Origin: Argopecten irradians
Taxonomy: Eukaryota > Mollusca > Bivalvia > Pectinida > Pectinidae
Reading direction: 5' to 3'
Assembly: GCF_041381155.1 (NCBI RefSeq)
Contig: NC_091135.1
Location: forward strand, 69,738,418-69,802,417
Length of the DNA: 64,000 nucleotides
Positions 26,411-61,879 of this stretch are shown here, one piece after another; position 1 is the first letter of the stretch, and the number at the start of each line of letters is the position of its first letter. A program made the translations under genes and the position numbers. The notes under the pieces are model-generated. The model saw only the letters and a list, made by a program, of their open reading frames with translations. It did not search any database and had not been told where the DNA came from.

Positions 26411-26454
26411 CTTTTTCTATTTTGAACTCTTAATTATTATTTGTACACGTAATT

Positions 26455-32915: not shown

Positions 32916-33020
32916 TCATTTTGCAATATCATCTGGGTCCATGAAAGTGCAGGATTTTCTAATTTCTGTGTTGGTTCCAGTTTTACCAACCAACCAAAAC
33001 GTTCGCATCAGACCTTTCCC
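32916..33020 (-). CDS. Receptor-type guanylate cyclase, last coding exon
   Basis: A TTCGCTTTTAG acceptor on the minus strand leads into 34 codons and TGA. It starts in phase 0 with GKGLMRTFWLVGK, the conserved GKG.M.TYWL segment that closes the class III cyclase domain in receptor guanylate cyclases. A short tail (RKSCTFMDPDDIAK) follows. It joins in frame to the exon at 54880-54971, giving EVEIK-GKGLMRTFWL exactly as in the family. The intron between them is 21,859 bp and almost entirely satellite. I cannot tell which orthologue this is, because the extracellular and kinase-like parts lie outside the window. Confidence 0.95.
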   Translation of the reverse strand, partial: GKGLMRTFWLVGKTGTNTEIRKSCTFMDPDDIAK

Positions 33021-33256: not shown

Positions 33257-36200
33257 CCCTTTATTTCTACTTCTCCCCTCTCCTCAATGTACTGACCTTT
33301 ACCTCTACTTCTCCCCTCTCCTCAATGTACTGACCTTTATTTCTACTTCTCCCCTCTCCTCAATGTTCTCACCTTTATATCTACTTCTCCCCTCTCCTCA
33401 ATGTTCTCACCTTTATATCTACTTCTCCCCTCTCCTCAATGTACTCACCTTTATATCTACTTCTCCCCTGTCCTCAATGTTCTCACCTTTATTTCTATTT
33501 CTCCCCTCTCCTCAATGTTCTCACCTTTATATCTACTTCTCCCCTGTCCTCAATGTTCTCACCTTTATTTCTACTTCTCCCCTCTCCTCAATGTTCTCAC
33601 CTTTATATCTACTTCTCCCCTGTCCTCAATGTTCTCACCTTTATTTCTACTTCTCCCCTCTCCTCAATGTTCTCACCTTTATATCTACTTCTCCCCTCTC
33701 CTCTATGTACTAACCTTTATTTCTACTTCTCCCCTCTCCTCAATGTTCTCACCTTTATATCTACTTCTCCCCTCTCCTCAATGTTCTCACCTTTATTTCT
33801 ACTTCTCCCCTCTCCTCAATGTTCTCACCTTTATATCTACTTCTCCCCTCTCCTCTATGTACTAACCTTTATTTCTACTTCTCCCCTCTCCTCAATGTTC
33901 TCACCTTTATATCTACTTCTCCCCTCTCCTCAATGTTCTCACCTTTATATCTACTTCTCCCCTCTCCTCAATGTACTAACCTTTATATCTACTTCTCCCC
34001 TGTCCTCAATGTTCTCACCTTTATTTCTACTTCACCCCTCTCCTCAATGTTCTCACCTTTATATCTACTTCTCCCCTCTCCTCAATGTTCTTACGTTTAT
34101 TTCTACTTCTCCCCTCTCCTCAATGTACTCACCTTTATTTCTACTTCTCCCCTCTCCTCTATGTACTAACCTTTATTTCTACTTCTCCCCTCTCCTCAAT
34201 GTACTCAACTTTATTTCTACTTCTCCCCTCTCCTCAATGTTCTCACCTTTATTTCTATTTCTCCCCTCTCCTCAATGTTCTCACCTTTATTTCTACTTCT
34301 CCTCTCTCCTCAATGTACTAACCTTTATTTCTACTTCTCCCCTCTCCTCAATGTCTCACCTTTATTTCTACTTCTCCCCTCTCCTCAATGTTCTCACCTT
34401 TATTTCTACTTCTCCCCTCTCCTCAATGTTCTCACCTTTATTTCTACTTCTCCCCTCTCCTCAATGTTCTCACCTTTATTTCTACTTCTCCCTCTCCTCA
34501 ATGTACTAACCTTTATTTCTACTTCTCCCCTCTCCTCAATGTACTAACCTTTATTTCTACTTCTCCCCTCTCCTCTGCTCAATGTACTCACCTTTATTTC
34601 TACTTCTCCCCTCTCCTCAATGTACTGACCTTTATTTCTACCTCTCCTCAATGTACTAACCTTTATATCTACTTCTCCCCTCTCCTCTATGTTCTCACCT
34701 TTATATCTACTTCTCCCCTCTCCTCTATGTACTAACCTTTATTTCTACTTCTCCCCTCTCCTCAATGTTCTCACCTTTAATTTCTATTTCTCCCCTCTCC
34801 TCAATGTTCTCACCTTTATTTCTACTTCTCTACTTCTCCCTCTCCTCAATGTTCTCACCTTTATTTCTACTTCTCCCCTCTCCTCAATGTTCTCACCTTT
34901 ATTTCTACTTCTCCCCTCTCCTCAATGTACTAACCTTTATTTCTACTTCTCCCCTCTCCTCAATGTTCTCACCTTTATTTCTACTTCTCCCCTCTCCTCA
35001 ATGTACTAACCTTTATATCTACTTCTCCCCTCTCCTCTATGTACTAACCTTTATTTCTACTTCTCCCCTCTCCTCAATGTTCTCACCTTTATATCTACTT
35101 CTCCCCTCTCCTCTATGTACTACTAACCTTTATTTCTACTTCTCCCCTCTCCTCTATGTACTAACCTTTATTTCTACTTCTCCCCTCTCCTCAATGTACT
35201 GAACTTTATTTCTACTTCTCCCTTCTCCTCAATGTTCTCAACTTCATTTCTACTTCTCCCCTCTCCTCAATGTACTAACCTTTATTTCTACTTCTCCCCT
35301 CTCCTCAATGTTCTCACCTTTATTTCTTACTTCTCCCCTCTCCTCAATGTACTAACCTTTATTTCTACTTCTCCCCTCTCCTCAATGTACTGAACTTTAT
35401 TTCTACTTCTCCCTCTCCTCAATGTTCTCAACTTCATTTCTACTTCTCCCCTCTCCTCAATGTTCTCACCTTTATATCTACTTCTCCCCTCTCCTCAATG
35501 TACTGACCTTTATTTCTACTTCTCCCCTCTCCTCAATGTACTCACCTTTATTTCTACTTCTCCCCTCTCCTCAATGTACTAACCTTTATGTCTACTTCTC
35601 AACTCTCTTCAATGTTCTCACCTTTATTTCTACTTCTCCCCTCTCCTCAATGTTCTCACCTTTATTTCTACTTCTCCCCTCTCCTCAATGTACTGACCTA
35701 TACTCTATTTCTACTTCTCCCCTCCCCTCTCCTCAATGTACTGACCTTTATTTCTACTTCTCCCCTCTCCTCAATGTTCTCACCTTTATTTCTACTTCTC
35801 CCCTCTCCTCAATGTTCTCACCTTTATTTCTACTTCTCCCCTCTCCTCAATGTACTCACCTTTATTTCTACTTCTCCCCTCTCCTCAATGTACTCACCTT
35901 TATATCTACTTCTCCCCTCTCCTCAATGTTCTCACCTTTATTTCTACTTCTCCCCTCTCCTCAATGTTCTCACCTTTATATCTACTTCTCCCCTCTCCTC
36001 AATGTACTAACCTTTATTTCTACTTCTCCCCTCTCCTCAATGTTCTCACCTTTATATCTACTTCTCCCCTCTCCTCAATGTTCTCACCTTTATTTCTACT
36101 TCTCCCCTCTCCTCAATGTACTAACCTTTATTTCTACTTCTCCCCTCTCCTCAATGTTCTCACCTTTATATCTACTTCTCCCCTCTCCTCAATGTACTAA

Positions 36201-39200
36201 CCTTTATTTCTACTTCTCCCCTCTCCTCAATGTTCTCACCTTTATATCTACTTCTCCCCTCTCCTCAATGTACTAACCTTTATTTCTACTTCTCCCCTCT
36301 CCTCAATGTTCTCACCTTTATATCTACTTCTCCCCTCTCCTCAATGTACTCACCTTTATATCTACTTCTCCCCTGTCCTCAATGTTCTCACCTTTATTTC
36401 TACTTCTCCCCTCTCCTCAATGTTCTCACGTTTATTTCTACTTCTCCCCTCTCCTCAATGTACTCACCTTTATTTCTACTTCTCCCCTCTCCTCAATGTA
36501 CTAACCTTTATTTCTACTTCTCCCCTCTCCTCAATGTACTCACCTTTATTTCTACTTCTCCCCTCTCCTCAATGTTCTCACCTTTATATCTACTTCTCCC
36601 CTCTCCTCAATGTTCTCACCTTTATTTCTACTTCTCCCCTCTCCTCAATGTACTCACCTTTATTTCTACTTCTCCCCTCTCCTCAATGTACTAACCTTTA
36701 TTTCTACTTCTCCCCTCTCCTCAATGTTCTCACCTTTATATCTACTTCTCCCCTCTCCTCAATGTTCTCACCTTTATATCTACTTCTCCCCTCTCCTCAA
36801 TGTTCTCACCTTTATTCTACTTCTCCCTCTCCTCAATGTTCTCACCTTTATTTCTACTTCTCCCCTCTCCTCAATGTTCTCACCTTTATTTCTACTTCTC
36901 CCCTCTCCTCAATGTTCTCACCTTTATATCTACTTCTCCCCTCTCCTCAATGTACTAACCTTTATTTCTACTTCTCCCCTCTCCTCAATGTTCTCACCTT
37001 TATTTCTACTTCTCCCCTCTCCTCAATGTTCTCACCTTTATTTCTACTTCTTCCCCTCTCCTCAATGTTCTCACCTTTATATCTACTTCTCCCCTCTCCT
37101 CAATGTACTCACCTTTATATCTACTTCTCCCCTCTCCTCAATGTTCTCACCTTTATTTCTACTTCTCCCCTCTCCTCAATGTTCTCACCTTTATTTCTAC
37201 TTCTCCCCTCTCCTCAATGTTCTCACCTTTATTTCTACTTTCCCCCTCTCCTCAATGTTTACTTTACCTTTATTTCTTTTCCCTCTCCTCAATGTACTAA
37301 CTTTATTTCTACTTCTCCCCTCTCCTCAATGTTCTCACCTTTATTTTACTTCTCCCCTCTCCTCAATGTTCTCACCTTTATTTCTACTTCTCCCCTCTCC
37401 TCAATGTACTAACCTTTATTTCTACTTCTCCCCTCTCCTCAATGTTCTCACCTTTATTTCTACTTCTCCCCTCTCCTCAATGTACTAACCTTTATTTCTA
37501 CTTCTCCCCTCTCCTCAATGTTCTCACCTTTATTTCTACTTCTCCCCTCTCCTCAATGTACTGACCTTCCTCTCCTCAATGTACTAACCTTTATTTCTAC
37601 TTCTCCCCTCTCCTCAATGTACTAACCTTTATTTCTACTTCTCCCCTCTCCTCAATGTACTCACCTTTATTTCTACTTCTCCCCTCTCCTCAATGTACTC
37701 ACCTTTATTTCTACTTCTCCCCTCTCTCCTCAATGTACTAACCTTTATATCTACTTCTCCCTCTCCTCAATGTACTAACCTTTATTTCTACTTTCTCCCC
37801 CTCTCCTCAATGTTCTCACCTTTATTTCTACTTCTCCCCTCTCCTCAATGTACTAACCTTTATTTCTACTTCTCCCCTCTCCTCAATGTACTCACCTTTA
37901 TTTCTACTTCTCCCCTCTCCTCAATGTTCTCACCTTTATTTCTACTTCTCCCCTCTCCTCAATGTACTCACCTTTATTTCTACTTCTCCCCTCTCCTCAA
38001 TGTACTAACCTTTATTTCTACTTCTCCCCTCTCCTCAATGTACTCACCTTTATTTCTACTTCTCCCCTCTCCTCAATGTACTCACCTTTATATTCTACTT
38101 CTCACCTCTCCTCAATGTACTCACCTTTATTTCTACTTCTCCTCTCTCCTCAATGTTCTCACCTTTATTTCTACTTCTCCCCTCTCCTCAATGTCTGACC
38201 TTTATCTACTTCTCCCCTCTCCTCAATGTCTACCTTTATTTCTACTTCTCCCCTCTCCTCAATGTACTAACCTTTATTTCTACTTCTCCCCTCTCCTCAA
38301 TGTACTCACCTTTATTTCTACTTCTCCCCTCTCCTCAATGTACTCACCTTTATTTCTACTTCTCCCTCTCCTCAATGTTCTCACCTTTTATTTCTACTTC
38401 TCCCTCTCCTCAATGTTCTCACCTTTATTTCTACTTCTCCCCTCTCCTCAATGTTCTCACCTTTATATCTACTTCTCCCCTCTCCTCAATGTAATAACCT
38501 TTATTTCTACTTCTCCCCTCTCCTCAATGTACTGACCTTTATATCTACTTCTCCCCTCTCCTCAATGTACTCACCTTTATTTCTACTTCTCCCCTCTCCT
38601 CAATGTACTAACCTTTATTTCTACTTCTCCCCTCTCCTCAATGTTCTCACCTTTATTTCTACTTCTCCCCTCTCCTCAATGTTCTCACCTTTATTTCTAC
38701 TTCTCCCCTCTCCTCAATGTACTCACCTTTATTTCTACTTCTCCCCTCTCCTCAATGTTCTCACCTTTATTTCTACTTCTCCCCTCTCCTCAATGTACTG
38801 ACCTTTATTTCTACTTCTCCCCCTCTCCTCAATGTTCTCACCTTTATATCTAAATCTCCCTCCCCTCTCTTCAATGTTCTCACCTTTATTTCTACTTCTC
38901 CCCTCTCCTCAATGTACTCACCTTTATATCTACTTCTCCCCTCTCCTCAATGTACTCACCTTTATTTCTACTTCTCCCCTCTCCTCAATGTTCTCACCTT
39001 TATATCTACTTCTCCCCTCTCCTCAATGTACTAACCTTTATTTCTACTTCTCCCCTCTCCTCAATGTTCTCACCTTTATTTCTACTTCTCCCCTCTCCTC
39101 AATGTACTCACCTTTATTTCTACTTCTCCCCTCTCCTCAATGTTCTCACCTTTATTTCTACTTCTCCCCTCTCCTCAATGTACTAACCTTTATTTCTACT

Positions 39201-42200
39201 TCTCCCCTCTCCTCAATGTTCTCACCTTTATTTCTACTTCTCCCCTCTCCTCAATGTTCTCACTTTATTTTACTTTTTCTACTTCTCCCCTCTCCTCAAT
39301 GTTCTCACCTTTATTTCTACTTCTCCCCTCTCCTCAATGTACTAACCTTTATTTCTACTTCTCCCCTCTCCTCAATGTTCTCACCTTTATTTCTACTTCT
39401 CCCCTCTCCTCAATGTTCTCACCTTTATTTCTACTTCTCCCCTCTCCTCAATGTACTCACCTTTATTTCTACTTCTCCCCTCTCCTCAATGTTCTCACCT
39501 TTATTTCTACTTCTCCCCTCTCCTCAATGTTCTCACCTTTATTTCTACTTCTCCCCTCTCCTCAATGTTCTCACCTTTATTTCTACTTCTCCCCTCTCCT
39601 CAATGTTCTCACCTTTATTTCTACTTCTCCCCTCTCCTCAATGTTCTCACCTTTATTTCTACTTCTACTTCTCCCCTCTCCTCAATGTTCTCACCTTTAT
39701 TTCTACTTCTCCCTCTCCTCAATGTACTAACCTTTATTTCTACTTCTCCCCTCTCCTCAATGTACTAACCTTTATTTCTACTTCTCCCCTCTCCTCAATG
39801 TACTCACCTTTATTTCTACTTCTCCCCTCTCCTCAATGTACTCACCTTTATATCTACTTCTCCCCTCTCCTCAATGTACTAACCTTTATTTCTACTTCTC
39901 CCCTCTCCTCAATGTACTCACCTTTATTTCTACTTCTCCCCTCTCCTCAATGTACTAACCTTTATTTCTACTTCTCCCCTCTCCTCAATGTTCTCACCTT
40001 TATATCTACTTCTCCCCTCTCCTCAATGTACTAACCTTTATTTCTACTTCTCCCCTCTCCTCAATGTTCTCACCTTTATTTCTACTTCTCCCCTCTCCTC
40101 AATGTACTCACCTTTATTTCTACTTCTCCCCTCTCCTCAATGTACTCACCTTTATATCTACTTCTCCCCTCTCCTCAATGTACTCACCTTTATTTCTACT
40201 TCTCCCCTCTCCTCAATGTTCTCACCTTTATTTCTACTTCTCCCCTCTCCTCAATGTTACTCACCTTTATTTCTACTTCTCCCCTCTCCTCAATGTACTC
40301 ACCTTTATTTCTACTTCTCCCTCTCCTCAATGTTCTCACCTTTATTTCTACTTCTCCCCTCTCAATGTTAACCTTTATTTCTACTTCTCCCTCTCCTCAA
40401 TGTTTCACCTTTATTTCTACTTCTCCCCTCTCCTCAATGTACTCACCTTTATTTCTACTTCTCCCCTCTCCTCAATGTTACTCACCTTTATTTCTACTTC
40501 TCCCCTCTCTCAATGTTCTCACCTTTATTTCTACTTCTCCCCTCTCCTCAATGTTCTCACCTTTATTTCTACTTCTCCCCTCTCCTCAATGTACTAACCT
40601 TTATTTCTACTTCTCCCCTCTCCTCAATGTTCTACCTTTATTTCTACTTCTCCCCTCTCCTCAATGTTTCTAACCTTTATTTCTACTTCTCCCCTCTCCT
40701 CAATGTTACTCAACCTTTATTTCTACTTCTCCCCTCTCCTCAATGTTCTCACCTTTATTTCTACTTCTCCCCCTCTCCTCAATGTCTAACCTTTATTTCT
40801 ACTTCTCCCCTCTCCTCAATGTTCTAACCTTTATTTCTACTTCTCCCCTCTCCTCAATGTTCTCACCTTTATTTCTACTTCTCCCCTCTCCTCAATGTTC
40901 TCACCTTTATTTCTACTTCTCCCCTCTCCTCAATGTACTCACCTTTATTTCTACTTCTCCCCTCTCCTCAATGTTCTCACCTTTATTTCTACTTCTCCCC
41001 TCTCCTCAATGTCTCACCTTTATTTCTACTTCTCCCCTCTCCTCAATGTACTAACCTTTATTCTACTTCTCCCCTCTCCTCAATGTACTCACCTTTATAT
41101 CTACTTCTCCCCTCTCCTCAATGTACTAACCTTTATTTCTACTTCTCCCCTCTCCTCAATGTACTAACCTTTATTTCTACTTCTCCCCTCTCCTCAATGT
41201 TCTCACCTTTATTTCTACTTCTCCCCTCTCCTCCAATGTTACTTCACCTTTATTTCTACTTCTCCCCTCTCCTCAATGTACTGACCTTTATTTCTACTTC
41301 TCCCCCCTCTCCTCAATGTTCTCACCTTTATTTCTACTTCTCCCCTCTCCTCAATGTACTCTCACCTTTATTTCTACTTCTCCCCTCTCCTCAATGTACT
41401 AACCTTTATTTCTACTTCTCCCCTCTCCTCAATGTTCTCACCTTTATTTCTACTTCTCCCCTCTCCTCAATGTTCTCACCTTTATTTCTACTTCTCCCCT
41501 CTCCTCAATGTTCTCACCTTTATTTCTACTTCTCCCCTCTCCTCAATGTACTGAACCTTTTATTTCTACTTCTCCCTTCCTCTCTCCCTCAATATTCTCA
41601 CCTTTATTTCTACTTCTCCCCTCTCCTCAATGTACTAACCTTTATTTCTACTTTCTCCCCTCTCCTCAATGTACTCACCTTTATTTCTACTTCTCTCCTC
41701 TCCTCAATGTACTAACCTTTATTTCTACTTCTCCCCTCTCCTCAATGTTCTCACCTTTATTTCTACTTCTCCCCTCTCCTCAATGTCTCACCTTTATTTC
41801 TACCTCTCTCTACTTCTCCCATAGTATTCTGACCTTCCCTCCTCAATGTACTAACCTTTATTTCTACTTCTCCCCTCTCCTCAATGTTCTCACCTTTATT
41901 TCTACTTCTCCCCTCTCCTCAATGTTCTCACCTTTATTTCTACTTCTCCCCTCTCCTCAATGTACTAACCTTTATTTCTACTTCTCCCCTCTCCTCAATG
42001 TTCTCACCTTTATTTCTACTTCTCCCCTCTCCTCAATGTACTCACCTTTATTTCTACTTCTCCCCTCTCCTCAATGTACTCACCTTTATTTCTACTTCTC
42101 CCCTCTCCTCAATGTTACTCACCTTTATTTCTACTTCTTCTCCCCTCTCCTCAATGTTCTCACCTTTATTTCTACTTCTCCCCTCTCCTCAATGTTCTCA

Positions 42201-45200
42201 CACCTTTATTACCTACTTCTTCCCTCTCCTCAATGTTCTCACCTTTATTTCTACTTCTCCCTCTCCTCAATGTTCTACACCTTTATTCTACTTCTCCCCT
42301 CTCCTCAATGTACTAACCTTTATTTATCTACTTCTCCCCCTCTCCTCAAAGTAATCACCTTTATTTCTACTTCTCCCCTCTCCTCAATGTACTGACCTTC
42401 CTCTCCTCTATGTACAAACCTTTATTTCTACTTCTCCCCTCTCCTCAATGTACTAACCTTTATTTCTACTTCTCCCCTCTCCTCAATGTACTCACCTTTA
42501 TTTCTACTTCTCCCCTCTCCTCAATGTACTCACCTTTATTTCTACTTCTCCCCTCCTTCAATGTTCTCACCTTTATTTCTACTTCTCTCCCCTCTCCTCA
42601 ATGTACTCGACCTTTATTTCTACTTTCTCCCCTCTCCTCAATGTACTAACCTTTATTTTCTACTTCTCCCCTCTCCTCAATGTACTAACCTTTATTTCTA
42701 CTTCTCCCCTCTCCTCAATGTTCTCACTTCATTTCTACTTCTTCCCCTCTACCTACTACCTTTATTTCTACTTCTCCCCTCTCCTCAATGTACTAACCTT
42801 TATTTCTACTTCTCCCCTCTCCTCAATGTACTCACCTTTATTTCTACTTCTTCTCCCCTCTCCTCAATGTTCTCACCTTTATTTCTACTTCTCCCCTCTC
42901 CTCAATGTTCTCACCTTTATATCTACTTCTCCCCTCTCCTCAATGTACTAACCTTTATTTCTACTTCTCCCCTCTCCTCAATGTACTGACCTTTATTTCT
43001 ACTTCTCCCCTCTCCTCAATGTTCTCACCTTTATTTCTACTTCTCCCCTCTCCTCAATGTACTAACCTTTATTTCTACTTCTCCCCTCTCCTCAATGTAC
43101 TCACCTTTATTTCTACTTCTCCCCTCTCCTCAATGTACTAACCTTTATTTCTACTTCTCCCCTCTCCTCAATGTACTAACCTTTATATCTACTTCTCCCC
43201 TCTCCTCAATGTACTAACCTTTATTTCTACCTACTTCTCCCCTCTCCTCAATGTACTAACCTTTATATTTCTACTTCTCCCCTCTCCTCAATGTACTAAC
43301 CTTTATTTCTACTTCTCCCCTCTCCTCAATGTACTAACCTTTATTTCTACTTCTCCCCTCTCCTCAATGTACTAACCTTTATTTCTACTTCTCCCCTCTC
43401 CTCAATGTACTGACCTTTATTTCTACTTCTCCCCTCTCCTCAATGTACTAACCTTTATTTCTACTTCTCCCCTCTCCTCAATGTACTAACCTTTATTTCT
43501 ACTTCTCCCCTCTCCTCAATGTACTAACCTTTATTTCTACTTCTCCCCTCTCCTCAATGTTCTCACCTTTATTTCTACTTCTCCCCTCTCCTCAATGTAT
43601 TCTACCTTTATTTCTACTTCTCCCCTCTCCTCAATGTACTGACCTTTATTTCTACTTCTCCCCTCTCCTCAATGTTCTCACCTTTATTTCTACTTCTCCC
43701 CTCTCCTCAATGTTCTAACCTTTATTTCTACTTCTCCCCTCTCCTCAATGTACTAACCTTTATTTCTACTTCTCCCCTCTCCTCAATGTACTCACCTTTA
43801 TTTCTACTTCTCCCCTTCCTCAATGTACTAACCTTTATTTCTACTTCTCCCCTCTCTCCTCAATGTTACTCTACCTCATGTTACTTTATTTCTACTTCTC
43901 CCTCTCCTCAATGTACTGACCTTTATTTCTACTTCTCCCCTCTCCTCAATGTACTAACCTTTATTTCTACTTCTCCCCTCTCCTCAATGTTCTCACCTTT
44001 ATTTCTACTTCTCCCCTCTCCTCAATGTTCTCACCTTTATTTCTACTTCTCCCCTCTCCTCAATGTACTCACCTTTATTTCTACTTCTCCCCTCTCCTCA
44101 ATGTACTCACCTTTATTTCTACTTCTCCCCTCTCCTCAATGTACTAACCTTTATTTCTACTTCTCCCCTCTCCTCAATGTTCTCACCTTTATATCTACTT
44201 CTCCCCTCTCCTCAATGTACTAACCTTTATTTCTACTTCTCCCCTCTCCTCTATGTACTAACCTTTATTTCTACTTCTCCCCTTTCCTCAATGTACTAAC
44301 CTTTATTTCTACCTCTCTCTCCTCTCTCAATGTAGTACTGACCTTTATATCTACTTCACCCCTCTCCTCAATGTTCTCAACTTTATTCTACTTCTCCCCT
44401 CTCCTCAATGTACTAACCTTTATTTCTACTTCTCCCCTCTCCTCAATGTTCTCACCTTTATTTCTACTTCTCCCCTCTCCTCAATGTACTAACCTTTATT
44501 TCTACTTCTCCCCTCTCCTCAATGTTCTAACCTTTATTTCTACTTCTCCCCTCTCCTCAATGTACTAACCTTTATTTCTACTTCTCCCCCTCTCCTCAAT
44601 GTACTAACCTTTATTTCTACTTCTCCCCTCTCTCCTCAATGTACTAACCTTTATATCTACTTCTCCCCTCTCCTCAATGTACTAACCTTTATTTCTACTT
44701 CTCCCCTCTCCTCAATGTTCTCACCTTTATTTCTACTTTCTCCCCTCTCCTCAATGTACTAACCTTTATTTCTACTTCTCCCCTCTCCTCAATGTACTAA
44801 CCTTTATTTCTACTTCTCCCCTCTCCTCAATGTTCTAACCTTTATTTCTACTTCTCCCCTCTCCTCAATGTACTGACCTTTATTTCTACTTCTCCCCTCT
44901 CCTCAATGTACTAACCTTTATTTCTACTTCTCTCCCCTCTCCTCAATGTACTAACCTTTATTCTACTTCTCCCCTCTCCTCAATGTACAACCTTTATTTC
45001 TACTTCTCCCCTCTCCTCAATGTACTAACCTTTATTTCTACTTCTCCCCTCTCCTCAATGTACTACCTTTATTTCACTTACCCCTCTCCTCAATTACTAC
45101 CTTTATTTCTACTTCTCCCCTCTCCTCAATGTTCTCACCTTTATTTCTACTTCTCCCCTCTCCTCATGTTCTACCTTTATATTCTACTTCTCCCCTCTCC

Positions 45201-48200
45201 TCAATGTACTAACCTTTATTTCTACTTCTCCCCCTCTCCTCAATGTACTTCTCACCTTTATTTCTACTTCTCCCCTCTCCTCAATGTTACTAACCTTTTA
45301 TTTCTACTTCTCCCCTCCTCTCCTCAATGTACTAACCTTTATTTCTACTTCTCCCCTCTCCTCAATGTACTCACCTTTATTTCTACTTCTCCCCTCTCCT
45401 CAATGTACTAACCTTTATATCTACTTCTCCCCTCTCCTCAATGTACTAACCTTTATTCTACTTCTCCTCCTCTCCTCAATGTACTAACCTTTATTTCTAC
45501 TTCTCTCCCTCTCCTCAATGTTCTCACCTTTATTTCTACTTCTCCCCTCTCCTCAATGTTCTCACCTTTATTTCTACTTCTCCCCTCTCCTCAATGTACT
45601 AACCTTTATTTCTACTTCTCCCCTCTCCTCAATGTTCTCACCTTTATATTTCTACTTCTCCCCTCTCCTCAATGTTCTCACCTTTATTTCTACTTCTCCC
45701 CTCTCCTCAATGTACTAACCTTTATTTCTACTTCTCCCCTCTCCTCAATGTTCTCACCTTTATTTCTACTTCTCCCCTCTCCTCAATGTACTAACCTTTA
45801 TTTCTACTTCTCCCCTCTCCTCAATGTACTAACCTTTATTTCTACTTCTCCCCTCTCCTCAATGTACTAACCTTTATTTCTACTTCTCCCCTCTCCTCTA
45901 TGTACTAACCTTTATTTCTACTTCTCCCCTCTCCTCAATGTACTAACCTTTATTTCTACTTCTCCCCTCTCCTCAATGTACTGACCTTTATTTCTACTTC
46001 TCCCCTCTCCTCAATGTACTAACCTTTATTTCTACTTCTCCCCCTCTCCTCAATGTACTAACCTTTATTTCTACTTCTCCCCTCTCCTCAATGTACTAAC
46101 CTTTATTTCTACTTCTCCCCTCTCCTCAATGTTCTCACCTTTATATCTACTTCTCCCCTCTCCTCAATGTACTAACCTTTATTTCTACTTCTCCCCTCTC
46201 CTCAATGTTCTCACCTTTATATCTACTTCTCCCCTCTCCTCTATGTACTAACCTTTATTTCTACTTCTCCCCTCTCCTCAATGTACTAACCTTTATTTCT
46301 ACTTCTCCCCTCTCCTCAATGTACTGACCTTTATTTCTACTTCTCCCCTCTCCTCAATGTACTAACCTTTATATCTACTTCTCCCCTCTCCTCAATGTAC
46401 TGACCTTTATTTCTACTTCTCCCCTCTCCTCAATGTACTAACCTTTATTTCTACTTCTCCCCTCTCCTCAATGTACTAACCTTTATTTCTACTTCTCCCC
46501 TCTCCTCAATGTACTCACCTTTATATCTACTTCTCCCCTCTCCTCAATGTTCTCACCTTTATTTCTACTTCTCCCCTCTCCTCAATGTTCTCACATTTAT
46601 ATCTACTTCTCCCCTCTCCTCAATGTACTAACCTTTATTTCTACTTCTCCCCTCTCCTCAATGTTCTCACCTTTATTTCTACTTCTCCCCTCTCCTCAAT
46701 GTACTAACCTTTATTTCTACTTCTCCCCTCTCCTCAATGTACTCACCTTTATATCTACTTCTCCCTCTCCTCAATGTACTAACCTTTATTTCTACTTCTC
46801 CCCTCTCCTCAATGTACTAACCTTTATTTCTACTTCTCCCCTCTCCTCAATGTTCTCACCTTTATTTCTACTTCTCCCCTCTCCTCAATGTACTAACCTT
46901 TATATTTATTTCCTCCACATTGTATTACTTTATTTCTACTTCTCCCCTCTCCTCAATGTACTAACCTTTATTTCTACTTCTCCCCTCTCCTCAATGTTCT
47001 CACCTTTATATCTACTTCTCCCCTCTCCTCAATGTACTAACCTTTATTTCTACTTCTCCCCTCTCCTCAATGTACTAACCTTTATATCTACTTCTCCCTC
47101 TCCTCAATGTACTAACCTTTATTTCTACTTCTCCCCTCTCCTCAATGTACTGACCTTTATTTCTACTTCTCCCCTCTCCTCAATGTTCTTACCTTTATTT
47201 CTACTTCTCCCCTCTCCTCAATGTTCTCACCTTTATTTCTACTTCTCCCCTCTCCTCAATGTACTCACCTTTATTTCTACTTCTCCCCTCTCCTCAATGT
47301 TCTCACCTTTATTTCTACTTCTCCCCTCTCCTCAATGTACTAACCTTTATTTCTACTTCTCCCCTCTCCTCAATGTACTAACCTTTATGTTCTACCTACT
47401 TCTCCCCTCTCCACAATGTTCTCACCTTTTATTATCTACTTCTCCCTCTCCTCAATGTACTAACCTTTATATCTACTTCTCCCCTCTCCTCAATGTACTA
47501 ACCTTTATTTCTACTTCTCCCCTCTCCTCAATGTACTCACCTTTATATCTACTTCTCCCCTCTCCTCAATGTACTAACCTTTATTTCTACTTCTCCCCTC
47601 TCCTCAATGTTCTCACCTTTATATCTACTTCTCCCCTCTCCTCAATGTACTAACCTTTATTTCTACTTCTCCCCTCTCCTCAATGTACTGACCTTTATTT
47701 CTACTTCTCCCCTCTCCTCAATGTACTAACCTTTATTTCTACTTCTCCCCTCTCCTCAATGTACTAACCTTTTATTTCTACTTCTCCCCTCTCCTCAATG
47801 TACTAACCTTTATTTCTACTTCTCCCCTCTCCTCAATGTACTAACCTTTATTTCTACTTCTCCCCTCTCCTCAATGTACTGAACTTTATTTCTACTTCTC
47901 CCTCTCCTCAATGTACTAACCTTTATTTCTACTTCTCCCCTCTCCTCAATGTACTACCTTTTATTTCTACTTCTCCCCTCTCCTCAATGTACTAACCTTT
48001 ATTTCTACTTCTCCCCTCTCCTCAATGTTCTAACCTTTATTTCTACTTCTCCCCTCTCCTCAATGTTCTCACCTTTATTTCTACTTCTCCCCTCTCCTCA
48101 ATGTACTAACCTTTATTTCTACTTCTCCCCTCTCCTCAATGTACTAACCTTTATATCTACTTCTCCCTCTCCTCAATGTACTAACCTTTATTTCTACTTC

Positions 48201-51200
48201 TCCCCTCTCCTCAATGTACTAACCTTTATTTCTACTTCTCCCCTCTCCTCAATGTACTAACCTTTATTTCTACTTCTCCCCTCTCCTCAATGTACTAACC
48301 TTTATTTCTACTTCTCCCTCTCCTCAATGTACTAACCTTTAATCTACTTCTCCCCTCTCCTCAATGTTCTCACCTTTATATCTACTTCTCCCCTCTCCTC
48401 AATGTTCTCACCTTTATATCTACTTCTCCCCTCTCCTCAATGTTCTCACCTTTATATCTACTTCTCCCCTCTCCTCAATGTTCTAACCTTTATTTCTACT
48501 TCTCCCCTCTCCTCAATGTACTAACCTTTATTTCTACTTCTCCCCTCTCCTCAATGTACTAACCTTTATTTCTACTTCTCCCCTCTCCTCAATGTACTAA
48601 CCTTTATTTCTACTTCTCCCCTCTCCTCAATGTACTAACCTTTATATCTACTTCTCCCCTCTCCTCAATGTTCAACCTTTATTTCTACTTCTCCCCCTCT
48701 CCTCAATGTTCTAACCTTTATTTCTACTTCTCCCCTCTCCTCAATGTACTAACCTTTATTTCTACTTCTCCCCTCTCCTCAATGTTCTACCTTTATTTCT
48801 ACTTCTCCCCTCTCCTCAATGTTCTCACCTTTATTTCTACTTCTCCCCTCTCCTCAATGTTCTAACCTTTATTTCTACTTCTCCCCTCTCCTCAATGTCT
48901 AACCTTTATTTCTACTTCTCCCCTCTCCTCAATGTACTAACCTTTATTTCTACTTCTCCCCTCTCCTCAATGTACTAACCTTTATTTCTACTTCTCCCCT
49001 CTCCTCAATGTACTAACCTTTATTTCTACTTCTCCCCTCTCCTCAATGTACTGACCTTTATATCTACTTCTCCCCTCTCCTCAATGTTCTCACCTTTATT
49101 TCTACTTCTCCCCTCTCCTCAATGTACTGACCTTTATTTCTACTTCTCCCCTCTCCTCAATGTACTCACCTTTATTTCTACTTCTCCCCTCTCCTCAATG
49201 TACTAACCTTTATTTCTACTTCTCCCCTCTCCTCAATGTACTGACCTTTATTTCTACTTCTCCCCTCTCCTCAATGTACTGACCTTTATTTCTACTTCTC
49301 CCTCTCCTCAATGTACTAACCTTTATTTCTACTTCTCCCCTCTCCTCAATGTTACCTTTATTCTACTTCTCCCTTCCTCATGTACTAACCTTTATTTCTA
49401 CTTCTCCCCTCTCCTCAATGTTCTCACCTTTATTTCTACTTCTCCCCTCTCCTCAATGTACTAACCTTTATTTCTACTTCTCCCCTCTCCTCAATGTACT
49501 AACCTTTATTTCTACTTCTCCCCTCTCCTCAATGTTCTCACCTTTATTTCTACTTCTCCCCTCTCCTCAATGTACTAACCTTTATTTCTACTTCTCCCCT
49601 CTCCTCAATGTTCTCACCTTTATATCTACTTCTCCCCTCTCCTCAATGTTCTCACCTTTATTTCTACTTCTCCCCTCTCCTCAATGTACTAACCTTTATT
49701 TCTACTTCTCCCCTCTCCTCAATGTTCTAACTTTATTTCTACTTCTCCCCTCTCCTCAATGTACTAACCTTTATTTCTACTTCTCCCCTCTCCTCAATGT
49801 ACAACCTTTATTTCTACTTCTCCCCTCTCCTCAATGTACTAACCTTTATTTCTACTTCTCCCCTCTCCTCAATGTTCTCACCTTTATTTCTACTTCTCCC
49901 CTCTCCTCAATGTACTGACCTTTATTTCTACTTCTCCCCTCTCCTCAATGTACTAACCTTTATTTCTACTTCTCCCCTCTCCTCAATGTACTAACCTTTA
50001 TTTCTACTTCTCCCCTCTCCTCAATGTACTAACCTTTATTTCTACTTCTCCCCTCTCCTCAATGTACTGACCTTTATATCTACTTCTCCCCTCTCCTCAA
50101 TGTATTAACCTTTATTTCTACTTCTCCCCTCTCCTCAATGTACTAACCTTTATTTCTACTTCTCCCCTCTCCTCAATGTACTAACCTTTATTTCTACTTC
50201 TCCCCTCTCCTCAATGTTCTCACCTTTATATCTACTTCTCCCCTCTCCTCAATGTACTAACCTTTATTTCTACTTCTCCCCTCTCCTCAATGTACTGACC
50301 TTTATATCTACTTCTCCCCTCTCCTCAATGTACTAACCTTTATTTCTACTTCTCCCCTCTCCTCATTATGTACTACCTTTATTTCTACTTCTCCCCTCTC
50401 CTCAATGTACTACACCTTTATTTCTACTTCTCCCCTCTCCTCAATGTACTAACCTTTATTTCTACTTCTCCCCTCTCCTCAATGTACTGACCTTTATATC
50501 TACTTCTCCCCTCTCCTCAATGTATAACCTTTATTTCTACTTCTCCCCTCTCCTCAATGTACTAACCTTTATTTCTACTTCTCCCCTCTCCTCAATGTAC
50601 TAACCTTTATTCTACTTCTCCCCTCTCCTCAATGTACTAACCTTTATTTTCTACTTCTCCCCTCTCCTCAATGTTCTCACCTTTATATCTACTTCTCCCC
50701 TCTCCTCAATGTACTGACCTTTATTTCTACTTCTCCCCTCTCCTCAATGTACTAACCTTTATATCTACTTCTCCCCTCTCCTCAATGTACTCACCTTTAT
50801 ATCTACTTCTTCCCTCTCCTCAATGTACTAACCTTTATATCTACTTCTCCCCTCTCCTCAATGTACTAACCTTTATTTCTACTTCTCCCCTCTCCTCAAT
50901 GTTCTCACCTTTATATCTACTTCTCCCCTCTCCTCAATGTACTAACCTTTATTTCTACTTCTCCCCTCTCCTCAATGTACTAACCTTTATTTCTACTTCT
51001 CCCCTCTCCTCAATGTACTAACCTTTATTTCTACTTCTCCCCTCTCCTCAATGTTACTCACCTTTATTTCTACTTCTCCCCTCTCCTCAATGTACTAACC
51101 TTTATTTCTACTTCTCCCCTCTCCTCAATGTACTAACCTTTATATCTACTTCTCCCCTCTCCTCAATGTACTAACCTTTATTTCTACTTCTCCCCTCTCC

Positions 51201-54200
51201 TCAATGTACTAACCTTTATTTCTACTTCTCCCCTCTCCTCAATGTACTCACCTTTATATCTACTTCTCCCTCTCCTCAATGTACTAACCTTTATTTCTAC
51301 TTCTCCCTCTCCTCAATGTTCTAACCTTTATTTCTACTTCTCCCTCTCCTCACATGTCATCTACTCCTCTCCTCAATGTACTAACCTTTATTTCTACTTC
51401 TCCCCTCTCCTCAATGTTCTCACCTTTATATCTACTTCTCCCCTCTCCTCAATGTTCTCACCTTTATATCTACTTCTCCCCTCTCCTCAATGTTCTCACC
51501 TTTATTTCTACTTCTCCCCTCTCCTCAATGTTCTCACCTTTATATCTACTTCTCCCCTCTCCTCAATGTACTCACCTTTATTTCTACTTCTCCCCTCTCC
51601 TCAATGTTCTCACCTTTATTTCTACTTCTCCCCTCTCCTCAATGTACTCACCTTTATTTCTACTTCTCCCCTCTCCTCAATGTACTCACCTTTATTTCTA
51701 CTTCTCCCCTCTCCTCAATGTACTCAACCTTTATTTCTACTTCTCCCCTCTCCTCAATGTTCTCACCTTTATTTCTACTTCTCCCCTCTCCTCAATGTAC
51801 TAACCTTTATTTCTACTTCTCCCCTCTCCTCAATGTTCTCACCTTTATTTCTACTTCTCCCCTCTCCTCAATGTACTAACCTTTATTTCTACTTCTCCCC
51901 TCTCCTCAATGTACTCACCTTTATTTCTACTTCTCCCCTCTCCTCAATGTACTCACCTTTATTTCTACTTCTCCCCTCTCCTCAATGTACTCACCTTTAT
52001 TTCTACTTCTCCCCTCTCCTCAATGTACTCACCTTTATTTCTACTTCTCCCCTCTCCTCAATGTACTAACCTTTATTTCTACTTCTCCCCTCTCCTCAAT
52101 GTACTCACCTTTATTTCTACTTCTCCCCTCTCCTCAATGTTCTCACCTTTATTTCTACTTCTCCCCTCTCCTCAATGTACTGACCTTTATTTCTACTTCT
52201 CCCCTCTCCTCAATGTACTCACCTTTATTTCTACTTCTCCCCTCTCCTCAATGTACTCACCTTTATTTCTACTTCTCCCCTCTCCTCAATGTACTCACCT
52301 TTATTTCTACTTCTCCCCTCTCCTCAATGTACTCACCTTTATTTCTACTTCTCTCCCTCTCCTCAATGTTCTCACCTTTATATCTACTTCTCCCCTCTCC
52401 TCAATGTTCTCACCTTTATATCTACTTCTCCCCTCTCCTCAATTTACCTTTATATCTACTTCTCCCCTCTCCTCAATGTACTCACCTTTATATCTACTTC
52501 TCCCCTCTCCTCAATGTTCTAACCTTTATTTCTACTTCTCCCCTCTCCTCAATGTACTCACCTTTATTTCTACTTCTCCCCTCTCCTCAATGTACTAACC
52601 TTTATTTCTACTTCTCCCCTCTCCTCAATGTTCTCACCTTTATATCTACTTCTCCCCTCTCCTCAATGTTCTCACCTTTATATCTACTTCTCCCCTCTCC
52701 TCAATGTACTAACCTTTATTTCTACTTCTCCCCTCTCCTCAATGTACTAACCTTTATTTCTACTTCTCCCCTCTCCTCAATGTTCTCACCTTTATATCTA
52801 CTTCTCCCCTCTCCTCAATGTACTAACCTTTATTTCTACTTCTCCCCTCTCCTCAATGTACTAACCTTTATTTCTACTTCTCCCCTCTCCTCAATGTTCT
52901 CACCTTTATTTCTACTTCTCCCCTCTCCTCAAAGTAATCACCTTTATTTCTACTTTCTCCCCTCTCCTCAATGTTCTCACCTTTATTTCTACTTCTCCCC
53001 TCTCCTCAATGTACTAACCTTTATTTCTACTTCTCCCCTCTCCTCAATGTACTGACCTTTATTTCTACTTCTCCCCTCTCCTCAATGTACTGACCTTTAT
53101 TTCTACTTCTCCCCTCTCCTCAATGTACTGACCTTTATTTCTACTTCTCCCCTCTCTTCAATGTACTGACCTTTATTTCTACTTCTCCCCTCTCCTCAAT
53201 GTACTAACCTTTATTTCTACTTCTCCCCTCTCCTCAATGTACTCACCTTTATTTCTACTTCTCCCCTCTCCTCAATGTACTGACCTTTATTTCTACTTCT
53301 CCCCTCTCCTCAATGTACTCACCTTTATTTCTACTTCTCCCCTCTCCTCAATGTACTGACCTTTATTTCTACTTCTCCCTCTCCTCAATGTTCTCACCTT
53401 TATTTCTACTTCTCCCCTCTCCTCAATGTACTGACCTTTATTTCTACTTCTCCCCTCTCCTCAATGTACTGACCTTTATTTCTACTTCTCAACTCTCCTC
53501 AATGTACTAACCTTTATTTCTACTTCTCCCCTCTCCTCAATGTACTGACCTTTATATCTACTTCTCCCCTCTCCTCAATGTACTCACCTTTATTTCTACT
53601 TCTCCCCTCTCCTCAATGTACTAACCTTTATTTCTACTTCTCCCCTCTCCTCAATGTTCTCACATTTATATCTACTTCTCCCCTCTCCTCAATGTTCTCA
53701 CCTTTATTTCTACTTCTCCCTCTCCTCAATGTTCTCACCTTTATTTCTACTTCTCCCCTCTCCTCAATGTACTACCTTATTTCTCTTCTCCCTCCTCTAT
53801 TCCCTCTCCTCAATGTTCTCACCTTTATTCTCTTCTCCCTCTCCTCAATGTTCTCACCTTTATTTCTACTTCTCCCTCTCCTCAATGTTCTCATCTTTAT
53901 ATCTACTTCACCCTCTCCTCAATGTACTAACCTTCATTTCTACTTCTCCCCTCTCCTCAATGTACTGACCTTTATTTCTACTTCTCCCCTCTCCTCAATG
54001 TACAAACCTTTATTTCTACTTCTCCCCTCTCCTCAATGTACTAACCTTTATATCTACTTCTCCCCTTTCCTCAATGTACTGACCTTTATTTCTACTTCTC
54101 CCCTCTCCTCAATGTACTCACCTTTATTTCTACTTCTCCCCTCTCTTCAATGTATTAACCTTTATTTCTACTTCTCCCCTCTCCTCAATGTTCTCACATT

Positions 54201-54880
54201 TATATCTACTTCTCCCCTCTCCTCAATGTTCTCACATTTATATCTACTTCTCCCCTCTCCTCAATGTACTAACCTTTATTTCTACTTCTCCCCTCTCCTC
54301 AATGTTCTCACCTTTATTTCTACTTCTCCCCTCTCCTCAATGTTCTCACCTTTATTTCTACTTCTCCCCTCTCCTCAATGTTCTCACCTTTATTTCTACT
54401 TCTCCCCTCTCCTCAATGTTCTCACCTTTATTTCTACTTCTCCCCTCTCCTCAATGTTCTCACCTTTATTTCTACTTCTTCTCCCCTCTCCTCAATGTAC
54501 TAACCTTTATTTCTACTTCTCCCCTCTCCTCAATGTTCTCACCTTTATTTCTACTTCTCCCCTCTCCTCAATGTTCTCACCTTTATTTCTACTTCTCCCC
54601 TCTCCTCAATGTTCTCACCTTTATTTCTACTTCTCCCCTCTCCTCAATGTTCTCACCTTTATATCTACTTCTCCCCTCTCCTCAATGTTCTCACCTTTAT
54701 TTCTACTTCTCCCCTCTCCTCAATGTTCTCACCTTTATTTCTACTTCTCCCCTCTCCTCAATGTACTCACCTTTATTTCTACTTCTCCCCTCTCCTCAAT
54801 GTTCTGTATATCTACTTCTCCCCTCTCCTCAATGTATTAACCTTTATTTCTACTTCTCCCCTCTCCTCTATGTACTGACC
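33257..54880 (-). repeat. 21.6-kb minisatellite of a 38-bp unit derived from an exon end and its 5' splice site
   Basis: About 570 head-to-tail copies fill the phase-0 intron of the guanylate cyclase gene. On the gene's strand the unit is the last 30 nt of the upstream exon (coding IEERGEVEIK) plus the first 8 nt of the intron. The exon end at 54880 is itself the first unit. Each copy therefore ends in AAAG|GT. Four donor variants dominate: GTGAGAAC, GTGAGTAC, GTTAGTAC and GTCAGTAC. A second variable site gives AGAAATAAAG or AGATATAAAG. The strand is purine-rich. Irregular units cluster near 37.25, 40.35, 41.6-41.85, 43.85, 45.1, 46.9, 49.35 and 53.8 kb. Confidence 0.98.
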
Positions 54881-54971
54881 TTTATTTCTACTTCTCCCCT
54901 CTCCTCAATGTCATATTCTTTGAACATTTCCAGTATATCTTTGGTGGACTCAGATATGTGTATACAGAGTG
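54880..54971 (-). CDS. Receptor-type guanylate cyclase, penultimate exon (source of the 38-bp satellite)
   Basis: The minus-strand acceptor TTGTTTTGTAG and donor AAAG|GTCAGT bound 92 bp, entering in phase 1 and leaving in phase 0. With the G from the previous exon it reads A-LCIHISESTKDILEMFKEY, then DIEERGEVEIK. This is the family's L.IH.S..T...L segment and the EERGEVEIK that precedes GKG. The match shows this is conserved cyclase coding sequence. Its last 30 nt are identical to the satellite consensus, so the array was copied from the exon and not the reverse. Its own donor, GTCAGT, is a weaker match to the consensus than the GTGAGT found in many array copies. Cys occupies the position that is usually Arg or Lys in L.IH. 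Confidence 0.95.
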
Positions 54972-55953: not shown

Positions 55954-56052
55954 CTTCGGATGTCGACTCCATCCTGGACGCAGTATTCACAGTGTCGCCA
56001 AACAGACAGTACCGAGGCATGGTCAGTCCGACCACTCCGGCCACAACTGACC
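55954..56052 (-). CDS. Receptor-type guanylate cyclase, catalytic exon
   Basis: The minus-strand acceptor TTTGAAG and donor GAAG|GTAATT bound 99 bp, in phase 1 at both ends. With the G of the previous exon it reads [20 protein letters not shown], then [13 protein letters not shown]. Family knowledge: the Cys of YCLFGD helps select guanine, and the Asn and Arg of TVNTASR bind ribose and stabilise the transition state. All are present, so the enzyme should make cGMP from GTP. The match to membrane (receptor) cyclases, [18 protein letters not shown], is better than to soluble ones. Confidence 0.97.
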
Positions 56053-56905: not shown

Positions 56906-56913
56906 GTTCGTAT

Positions 56914-57695
56914 TAGAATACCTAAGTGATAGCCGATCCGTATCTTTGATATGTTTGTTATAGAATACCTGAGTGAAGGGCGATCCGGATTTGATATAAT
57001 TGTTTAAGATTAACTGAATGAAAGTCGATCCGGGTCTTTGATATAATTGTTTCAGGAAACCTGAGAGAAGGCCGATCCGGATTTTTGATATGTTTGTTTT
57101 AGAATACCTGAGTGTAGGCCGATCCGGATTTTTATATGTTTGTTTTAGAATACCTGAGTGAAGGCCGATCCGGATTTTTGATATGTTTGTATTAGAATAC
57201 CTGAGGGGAGGCCGATCCGGATCTTTGATATGTTTGTTTTAGAATACCTGAGTGGAGGCCGATCCGGATCTTTGATATGATTGTTTTAGAATACCTGAGT
57301 GGAGGCCGATCCGGATCTTTGATATGTTTGTTTTAGAATATCTGAGTGGAGGCCGATCCGGATCTTTGATATGTTTGTTTTAGAATACCTGAGTGGAGGC
57401 CGATCCGGATCTTTGATATGTTTGTATTAGAATACCTGAGTGGAGGCCGATCCGGATTTTTGATATGTTTGTTTTAGAATACCTGAGTGGAAGCCGATCC
57501 GGATTTTTGATATGTTTGTTTTAGAATACCTGAGTGGAAGCCGATCCGGATTTTTGATATGTTTGTTTTAGAATACCTGAGTGGAGGCCGATCCGGATTT
57601 TTGATATGTTTGTTTTAGAAAACCTGAGTGGAAGCCGATCTGGATTTTTGATATGTTTGTTTTAGAATACCTGAGTGGAGGCCGATCCGGATTTT
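56914..57695 (-). repeat. 47-bp minisatellite derived from an exon end and its 5' splice site
   Basis: Sixteen intronic copies plus the exon's own copy. On the gene's strand the unit is the last 25 nt of the exon at 57671-57845 (coding KIRIGLHS) plus the first 22 nt of the intron, so each copy carries CACTCAG|GTATTC. Copies next to the exon are nearly identical. The three or four at the far end (56914-57070) are clearly degraded, for example with the donor context changed. This polarity suggests growth or correction at the exon side. Confidence 0.97.
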
Positions 57696-57845
57696 CAGAC
57701 TGGTGTCTGGTAGGTGTTTTATAGAAAATGACTTGACAGTGTCGCGGATCTGCAGGGACATCTGGGCGATATTGCTTGCGTGTAGACTTCCGTTCCGGGT
57801 GGGTAGTCCGGACACTACCATGTAGGCGTCGCCTATCGTCTCGAC
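57671..57845 (-). CDS. Receptor-type guanylate cyclase, catalytic exon (source of the 47-bp array)
   Basis: The minus-strand acceptor TTCCTGGAAG and donor CACTCAG|GTATTC bound 175 bp, phase 0 to phase 1. It reads VETIGDAYMVVSGLPTRNG through DTSLKIRIGLHS. Family knowledge: the Glu of VETIG recognises the guanine base and the Asp of GDAYM binds catalytic metal. Both are present. The exon joins perfectly to YK of the upstream exon and to GSVVAG of the downstream one. The last 25 nt, together with the donor, are the founder of the 47-bp array. Confidence 0.97.
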
Positions 57846-58080: not shown

Positions 58081-58149
58081 CTTGTATACATCCAGTTTAC
58101 CGATTACTTCATCAAAGCGTGTGTATAACTCGTTCAGCAACGTAATCAC
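58081..58149 (-). CDS. Receptor-type guanylate cyclase, exon before the catalytic VETIGDAY segment
   Basis: The minus-strand acceptor TTTATTCAG and donor AAG|GTAAGA bound 69 bp, phase 0 at both ends. It encodes VITLLNELYTRFDEVIGKLD-VYK, the family's LLNDLYTxFD...DVYK helix. The intron to the next exon is 235 bp and has no array. Upstream exons (the DIVGFT metal site, dimerisation helix, kinase-homology domain and receptor) were not found and must lie beyond 64 kb or be hidden by the retroelements. Confidence 0.95.
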
Positions 58150-58770: not shown

Positions 58771-59082
58771 CAAGCGTGAATCGTTATGGCTGGGTCACCT
58801 AACTAAAGGACAGCGTGAATCGTTATGGCTGGGTCACCTAACTAAAGGACAGCGTGAATCGTTATGGCTGGGTCACCTAACTAAAGGACAGCGTGAATCG
58901 TTATGGCTGGGTCACCTAACTAAAGGACAGCGTGAATCTTTATGGCTGGGTCACCTAACTAAAGGACAGCGTGAATCGTTATGGCTGGGTCACCTAACTA
59001 AAGGACAGCGTGAATCGTTATGGCTGGGTCACCTAACTAAAGGACAGCGTGAATCGTTATGGCTGGGTCACCTAACTAAACT
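58771..59082 (+). repeat. 39-bp tandem array, 8 copies
   Basis: Eight copies of a 39-bp unit (CGTGAATCGTTATGGCTGGG, then TCACCTAACTAAAGGACAG) are almost identical; one copy has CTTTA for CGTTA. The period is a multiple of three, and the plus strand is open across the array, reading RESLWLGHLTKGQ repeatedly within a 128-codon frame from 58706. I see no family match, so coding is doubtful. On the cyclase strand each unit has TTAG|GTGACC, a weak donor-like word. Confidence 0.95.
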
Positions 59083-61255: not shown

Positions 61256-61312
61256 ACATATAAGAACGAAGGTTCGGAGTGTAATCGTAGGGGTCGACCG
61301 ATTGCACCTACA

Positions 61313-61798: not shown

Positions 61799-61879
61799 TC
61801 TAAAGTCTCGGTGATTGTTGAACCAACAAGCAACTTCGTCCAATTCCATATTCTTATGGTATGTAAAGTAATTTGAAGT

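What the first reader, a model, noticed from the sequence alone, without database searches (positions are those of the whole stretch)
33257..54971. A 21.6-kb satellite made of about 570 copies of an exon end plus its 5' splice site
Seen directly: the penultimate coding exon of a receptor guanylate cyclase ends at 54880, and its last 30 nt plus the first 8 nt of intron are repeated head-to-tail for 21.6 kb through the intron. Because the exon part encodes the conserved EERGEVEIK segment, the exon is the ancestor. Every copy keeps AAAG|GT, so the intron holds hundreds of tandem donor sites. I know of no described satellite built from an exon/5'-splice-site junction at this scale.
Basis: seen in the sequence. 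Interest (0 to 1): 0.95.

Follow-up and report, generated by a model that had tools for sequence, protein, structure and literature searches.

The report
Giant intron of repeated splice sites
In a bay scallop gene, the last 32 letters of a coding exon and its splice signal have been copied about 570 times in a row to fill a 22-kb intron, and a neighbouring exon of the same gene shows a smaller array made the same way, which makes the gene a natural test of how cells pick one splice site among hundreds of look-alikes.

Summary
On the minus strand, 33258-54911 holds 570 tandem units of 38 nt, each 32 nt of exon end plus 6 nt of 5' splice site; 541 units keep AAAG|GT. The window is bay scallop, Argopecten irradians. 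The gene is an NPR-A-type receptor guanylate cyclase; exon 54880-54971 and the last exon (from 33020) are conserved in other scallops.

New: the donor of exon 57671-57845 seeds a second array, 17 units of 47 nt. Two of four donors, none of four acceptors tested, have copies in their own introns; two of five arrays ending on donors is unlikely by chance (about 0.0003, rough). Of 545 intronic AAGGT sites, 456 are predicted to pair with U1 better than the native donor, 260 of them by 1 kcal/mol or more. 553 of 570 units carry AATAAA or TATAAA. The A. irradians model found, P0241, ends ...EIKVST inside the array, without the last exon.

Donor columns are not better kept than the rest, so I favour tolerated minisatellite growth across splice donors, not selection. 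A human precedent exists (IFI6; title only). Genome-wide and RNA evidence could not be obtained.

The parts
33258..54911 (-). 38-nt array, 570 units, first unit inside exon 4; fills nearly all of a 21,859-nt intron
   Evidence: TRF; wrap-around alignment
54880..54971 (-). Exon 4 (penultimate, 92 nt), encodes ALCIHISESTKDILEMFKEYDIEERGEVEIK (first codon shared with exon 3); its last 32 nt are the array's first exonic copy
54874..54879 (-). Native 5' splice site intronic part GTCAGT; predicted U1 pairing -6.7 kcal/mol
32916..33020 (-). Last coding exon (GKGLMRTFWLVGK...DPDDIAK) with stop codon TGA at 32918-32916; acceptor CGCTTTTAG upstream
56906..57695 (-). Second array: 17 units of 47 nt = 25 nt of exon 2 end + 22 nt of intron; CAG|GT in 14 of 17 units; distal units most diverged
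   Evidence: TRF
57671..57845 (-). Exon 2 (VETIGDAYMVVSGLP...IRIGLHS), seeds the 47-nt array
55954..56052 (-). Exon 3; its donor has no copies in its intron above shuffled control
58081..58149 (-). Exon 1 of those in the window; its donor has no copies in its intron above shuffled control

Best explanation
In this scallop gene, a short tandem duplication spanned the exon-4 donor site. It was harmless because the upstream-most donor, next to the exon body, still defines exon 4, and all extra copies fall in the intron and are spliced out. Slippage and recombination between copies then grew and homogenised it to about 570 units. The same happened, at a smaller scale, at the exon-2 donor. The arrays are therefore by-products of a minisatellite-rich genome, filtered by splicing: growth across a donor is tolerated if the first copy keeps working. 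The consequence is an intron with hundreds of decoy U1 sites, most at least as strong as the real donor by predicted pairing, and most beside a poly(A)-type hexamer; use of the downstream donors tested, or cleavage in the array, would give a receptor cut off at EIKVST. Shown: the anatomy, the exon origin, conservation, recurrence at two donors, lack of extra constraint on donor columns, the truncating reading. Inferred: order of events, exon definition choosing the first donor, recombination as the growth step, any use of decoys or poly(A) sites.
For: 570 units; the exon's unit sequence occurs 26 times. Exon ends conserved in orthologues. 2 of 4 donors and 0 of the 4 acceptors tested have copies in their own intron (the acceptor of exon 1 was not tested, its intron leaves the window). 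Chance of 2 or more of 5 arrays having a terminal unit on a donor 0.000315 in 200,000 random placings. The window also holds arrays with no known exon link (24017-26412, 31969-32813, 58773-59080), and TRF repeats are 15.1% of the A. i. irradians draft genome (PMC7090048, passages), so array growth is common here. Donor-core columns (8) carry 4.75 substitutions and 2.9 deletions per column, the 27 other non-variable columns 2.33 and 4.5; together 7.6 against 6.9, so no sign that donors are kept by selection. The last exon is still conserved, so the splice across the array is presumably used.
Against: The one annotated A. irradians protein found for this locus, P0241, does not use the native donor: it runs 3 codons into the array and stops, lacking the last exon. 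It may be an annotation failure at a 22-kb repeat intron (it starts late too), or real. 456 of 545 intronic AAGGT sites have better predicted U1 pairing than the native donor (194 of them by only 0.2 kcal/mol, 260 by 1 or more), so why the native donor should win is not explained. Unit order shows no long blockwise duplication (longest exact repeat 186 nt against 150-213 in 20 unit-order shuffles) and only weak neighbour similarity (0.261 at lag 2, 0.192 expected, 99% of shuffles below 0.247), while simple unequal crossing-over would be expected to leave more. Deletions taken alone are fewer in donor columns (2.9 against 4.5). Genome-wide recurrence could not be tested.
Confidence: 0.72

Rival explanations
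1. The array is a functional switch. Each unit pairs a poly(A) hexamer with a U1 site, so when U1 is plentiful the intron is spliced and the full receptor made; when U1 is limiting the transcript is cut in the array and a receptor ending EIKVST is made. The array would be kept for this.
For: 457 AATAAA and 97 TATAAA in the array, in 553 of 570 units, next to the donor; the public model found ends at EIKVST; U1 suppression of intronic poly(A) sites is described in animals (telescripting; starts of the abstracts of PMC10404622 and PMC5499120 seen in the listing).
Against: AATAAA and AAAGGT are simply what the exon end (GAAATAAAG|GT) contained, so their co-occurrence needs no selection. Donor columns are not better kept than others, and 97 sites have the variant TATAAA. 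No RNA data. The second array lacks this pairing: no AATAAA and one TATAAA in 17 units.
Confidence: 0.1
2. The gene is decaying: the array has blocked normal splicing, the real product is the truncated form in the public model, and the last exon is a relic.
For: P0241 lacks the last exon and starts with MICRHLYYSSA, which the Mizuhopecten and Ylistrum orthologues do not have.
Against: The last exon keeps its frame, acceptor and a tail alignable to Mizuhopecten (DPDDIAK / DPDTLAK), and the other four exons in the window read intact. The model is short at the 5' side as well, which points to annotation trouble.
Confidence: 0.13
3. The array length is an assembly artefact: a modest repeat inflated or scrambled by the assembler.
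For: 133 of 570 units carry indels, and they are commonest in the middle: 60 of the 171 units from 46,284 down to about 39,764, against 73 of the other 399; deletions are commonest in the G run (35 of 570), as read errors would give.
Against: 153 distinct unit sequences, with three variable sites mixed differently along the array, are not a simple collapsed or copied contig; no long exact block repeats beyond control. The second array shows the same construction at 790 nt, a size long reads span easily.
Confidence: 0.1

Closest known systems
Human IFI6 (6-16) minisatellite with multiple splice donor sites (Turri et al. 1995, NAR; not held; title and one citing sentence seen)
   Same: A tandem repeat that provides splice donor sites; by the citing sentence in PMC4526556, two downstream repeat units serve as donors, giving alternative transcripts.
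   Different: By recall only, about 26 units of 12 nt; here about 570 units of 38 nt over 21.6 kb, and a second array in the same gene. Use of the scallop repeats as donors is not shown.
Intron gain by tandem genomic duplication of AGGT segments (PMC3443670, passages; PMC4974935, title and start of abstract in the listing)
   Same: Tandem duplication of a segment holding AG|GT, tolerated because splicing removes the extra copy.
   Different: There an exonic AGGT duplication creates a new intron. Here the donor of an intron was duplicated, the acceptor is elsewhere and unrelated to the unit, and the copy number is hundreds.
Dual-specific splice sites in tandem repeats, human UBC and VCX3A (PMC10809524, abstract and Discussion)
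   Same: Tandem units each carrying AG|GT, with expansion buffered by splicing.
   Different: UBC units are coding and in frame. The 38-nt unit has only 2 of 17 pyrimidines before its AG, so it is unlikely to act as acceptor; the 47-nt unit has 11 of 17, like the true acceptors (9-15 of 17), and might.
Satellite-like arrays of the Pacific oyster carried by Helentrons (PMC7492417, title and start of abstract in the listing)
   Same: Tandem arrays dispersed in a bivalve genome.
   Different: This array begins inside a coding exon, so no mobile-element origin is needed. Helentron ends were not searched for.

Membership tests
Satellite / large minisatellite array | Head-to-tail copies of one unit over kilobases, homogenised | tested here: met
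   570 units, 21.65 kb, 34 of 38 columns 97-100% invariant
Satellite / large minisatellite array | Amplified at several loci in the genome | not tested
   The genome search did not complete (and 15 repeats, last)
Donor-site minisatellite (IFI6 type) | Units contain a 5' splice site consensus, array begins at an exon end | tested here: met
   AAAG|GT in 541 of 570 units; first unit overlaps exon 4; CAG|GT in 14 of 17 units at exon 2
Donor-site minisatellite (IFI6 type) | Downstream units used as donors in mRNA | not testable with these tools
   No RNA data; P0241 reads through the native donor but its 3' end is unknown
Tandem-duplication intron gain | Intron ends are both copies of the duplicated AGGT | tested here: not met
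   Acceptor at 33020 reads CTTTTTCGCTTTTAG|GGG and has no copy in the 5 kb of intron before it above shuffled control
Dual-specific splice site array | Unit AG has an acceptor-like pyrimidine tract | tested here: inconclusive
   38-nt unit 2/17, 47-nt unit 11/17, the five true acceptors 9-15/17; use not tested
NPR-A-type receptor guanylate cyclase | Guanylate_cyc domain and C-terminal KGKGxxxTxWL tail | tested here: met
NPR-A-type receptor guanylate cyclase | Extracellular ligand-binding and kinase-homology domains | tested here: inconclusive
   Not looked for in the window beyond the cyclase domain; P0241 lacks them; present in the Mizuhopecten orthologue P0130 (PF01094, PF07714)

The most novel reading that the evidence does not exclude
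Splice donors are a recurrent seed of new satellites in scallops: duplications that straddle a donor are especially well tolerated, so exon ends with their 5' splice sites are repeatedly amplified into introns, growing them and flooding them with decoy U1 sites that can switch transcripts to truncated forms.
Probability: 0.27. Interest if true: 0.82.

Novelty: new variant of a known kind. Interest (0 to 1): 0.62.

Why it matters
It is an extreme natural test of 5' splice site choice: one 92-nt exon followed by about 540 copies of its own donor, 500 of 545 at least as strong by predicted U1 pairing, with a poly(A)-type hexamer beside most of them. Which donor is used, and whether the transcript survives the array, bears on exon definition and on U1 protection from early cleavage. 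If arrays at donors prove common, they are a route by which introns grow and a hidden source of broken gene models in minisatellite-rich genomes; the public model found for this very gene is cut off inside the array.

Tried and rejected
Higher-order repeat structure: tested by lag matching and long exact repeats; weak local similarity above shuffles, no blocks beyond the shuffled control. Selection on donors: tested by per-column changes and by exact retention of every 6-column window; AAAGGT is kept in 536 of 569, inside the range of the other windows free of the three variable columns (494 to 548). Copies at other splice sites: donors of exons 1 and 3 and the four acceptors tested show nothing above shuffled controls (only the nearest 5 kb of the long intron was used there). 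Known RNA families: none in the window at gathering threshold. Reading the 39-nt array (58773-59080) as a third donor array was considered: no cyclase exon was found beside it, so not counted. A mobile-element origin was set aside because the array starts inside a coding exon; element ends were not searched. In the chance estimate I used the five arrays of more than 7 copies with periods 38-61, merging two neighbouring 61-nt blocks; TRF rows with about 2-3 copies (periods 19-164) and the dinucleotide runs were left out. Paper searches for an exon-end or donor-derived satellite were judged from their listings, except for passages opened in PMC4526556 and PMC2915984; they gave the IFI6 precedent and nothing closer. 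One search returned no paper; subscription papers are mostly not held. One search was a faulty first version and is not used. One search printed exon borders and then failed; one search finished it. The U1 count (464 of 569) let a unit without AAGGT borrow its neighbour's site; one search recounts strictly per site (456 of 545) and replaces it.
Full report
What is there. Tandem Repeats Finder places a 38-nt repeat at 33258-54911 with 565.9 copies. Aligning the minus strand from 54911 to 33258 around a circular 38-nt consensus gives 570 units, 437 of them without indels, 445 of exactly 38 nt, 153 distinct sequences. The unit is ACATTGAGGAGAGGGGAGAAGTAGAAATAAAG|GTNAGN: 32 nt that are the end of the exon at 54880-54971, and 6 nt of donor site. 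Three columns vary much: column 25 (A 470, T 94), donor +3 (G 287, T 214, C 48) and donor +6 (T 347, A 209). The native unit's sequence occurs 26 times, itself included.

The gene and the species. A Toll-like receptor frame in the same window (12498-15188) is 100% identical over 98% to an annotated Argopecten irradians protein on a 73.1-Mb contig, so the window is bay scallop. Borders read from the sequence: 58081-58149, 57671-57845, 55954-56052, 54880-54971, and 33020 down to a stop codon at 32918-32916. The joined reading is open to the stop. Exons 4 and 5 together match Pfam Guanylate_cyc at 4.2e-07 and NPR1 chains of the PDB at 6.4e-11. P0129/P0130 of Mizuhopecten and P0132 of Ylistrum are 85-86% identical over the part searched. 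In the alignment of the tails, all five relatives included and the window's joined exons carry KGKGxxxTxWL, which here lies beyond the array; only the A. irradians model P0241 lacks it. The exon end is therefore old and coding, and the array is derived from it.

A second array of the same kind. The exon at 57671-57845 ends ...ATCCGGATCGGCCTCCACTCAG|GTATTC. Seventeen units of 47 nt run from 57695 to 56906, each made of 25 nt of that exon's end and 22 nt of its intron; 14 of 17 keep CAG|GT; the first is the exon's own, and the units furthest from the exon are the most diverged (40, 35, 43 and 33 of 47 matches in the last four). Tested against their own introns, 2 of 4 donors have copies and 0 of 4 acceptors; the fifth acceptor was not tested. 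Of five arrays with more than 7 copies in the window, two have their terminal unit on a donor; placing the same arrays at random gives two or more in 0.000315 of 200,000 trials. That test treats positions as uniform, was framed after seeing the arrays and leaves out the rows with 2-3 copies, so it is a rough guide only.

How it probably arose and is tolerated. The A. i. irradians draft is rich in tandem repeats (15.1% by TRF; PMC7090048, passages), and the window holds arrays with no known link to exons. A duplication that crosses a donor leaves the first donor next to an intact exon, and further copies fall in the intron. Growth is then nearly free. In agreement, the donor columns are not better kept than the rest: 4.75 substitutions per column against 2.33, and 2.9 deletions against 4.5; both together 7.6 against 6.9, leaving out the three variable columns. 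The two ends of the array have more substitutions (21 and 25 in the end tenths, 1 to 11 in the others), as expected if interior units are homogenised by exchange. Against a simple unequal-exchange picture, neighbouring units are only weakly alike (0.261 at lag 2, 0.192 expected; 99% of shuffles below 0.247), and there are no long block repeats beyond a shuffled control.

What it may do. By duplex energy with the U1 5' end, the native donor (GTCAGT) scores -6.7; of 545 intronic AAGGT sites 456 score lower, 44 equal, 45 higher. Of the stronger ones, 194 are at -6.9, a trivial difference; 260 are stronger by 1 kcal/mol or more, mainly 182 at -9.6 and 77 at -10.9. 553 of 570 units have AATAAA or TATAAA, in the consensus ending one base before the donor GT. 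I translated exon extension to the first five downstream AAAG|GT donors: all end EIKVST and stop, because of the ACATAG in the first intronic unit. The A. irradians model P0241 (248 aa) ends in exactly EIKVST. It was the only protein of this locus that I found in the listed best 120 of two searches, whose length brackets leave gaps. Its end either reflects transcripts ending or read through in the array, or a gene predictor that failed to bridge the intron. The model also begins late, which favours annotation failure, but the native junction has not been captured in that model, and I count it against my reading.

Relation to known things. The closest precedent is the human IFI6 minisatellite that provides multiple splice donors (title and one citing sentence seen; unit size and number recalled). 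Intron gain by tandem duplication of AGGT (PMC3443670, passages) shares the buffering logic but not the product: the acceptor here is unrelated to the unit. The paper on dual-specific AG|GT arrays (PMC10809524, abstract and Discussion) says, as I do, that expansion is likely less harmful when it can be spliced out; the 47-nt unit has an acceptor-like pyrimidine content and the 38-nt unit does not. In the listings of my searches I saw no array of this size built from an exon end, nor two in one gene; most listed papers were not opened, and most subscription papers are not in that library.

Limits. The window's own genome could not be searched in 16 attempts, so recurrence across the genome, copies of the 38-mer elsewhere and the upstream half of the gene are unknown. 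No RNA, no reads, no related scallop DNA were available. All duplex energies are predictions for isolated short strands.

Noticed in passing
56906-57695: A 47-nt array of 17 units seeded by the donor of exon 2 of the same gene; brought into the main finding.
   Followed up: yes
33258-54911: 553 of 570 units hold AATAAA or TATAAA just before the donor, because the exon ends in GAAATAAAG.
   Followed up: partly
54880-54971 and upstream: The public gene model P0241 is truncated at both sides: it starts after the kinase-homology region and ends inside the array.
   Followed up: partly
31969-32813: 50-nt array of about 17 copies starting about 100 nt after the cyclase stop codon, possibly in the 3' untranslated region.
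   Followed up: no
58773-59080: 39-nt array, 7.9 copies at 99% match, which suggests a recent expansion, upstream of exon 1.
   Followed up: partly
24017-26412: 61-nt array in two blocks (29.5 and 4.1 copies), part of it also fitted as 123-nt double units.
   Followed up: no
12498-15188: Toll-like receptor 4-type gene in one open frame with LRR and TIR domains, minus strand; a 77% identical A. irradians protein is listed from a contig of the same length.
   Followed up: partly
60380-62859: Open frames that look to me like a retroelement gag, protease and reverse transcriptase on the plus strand (reading translations, not searched).
   Followed up: no
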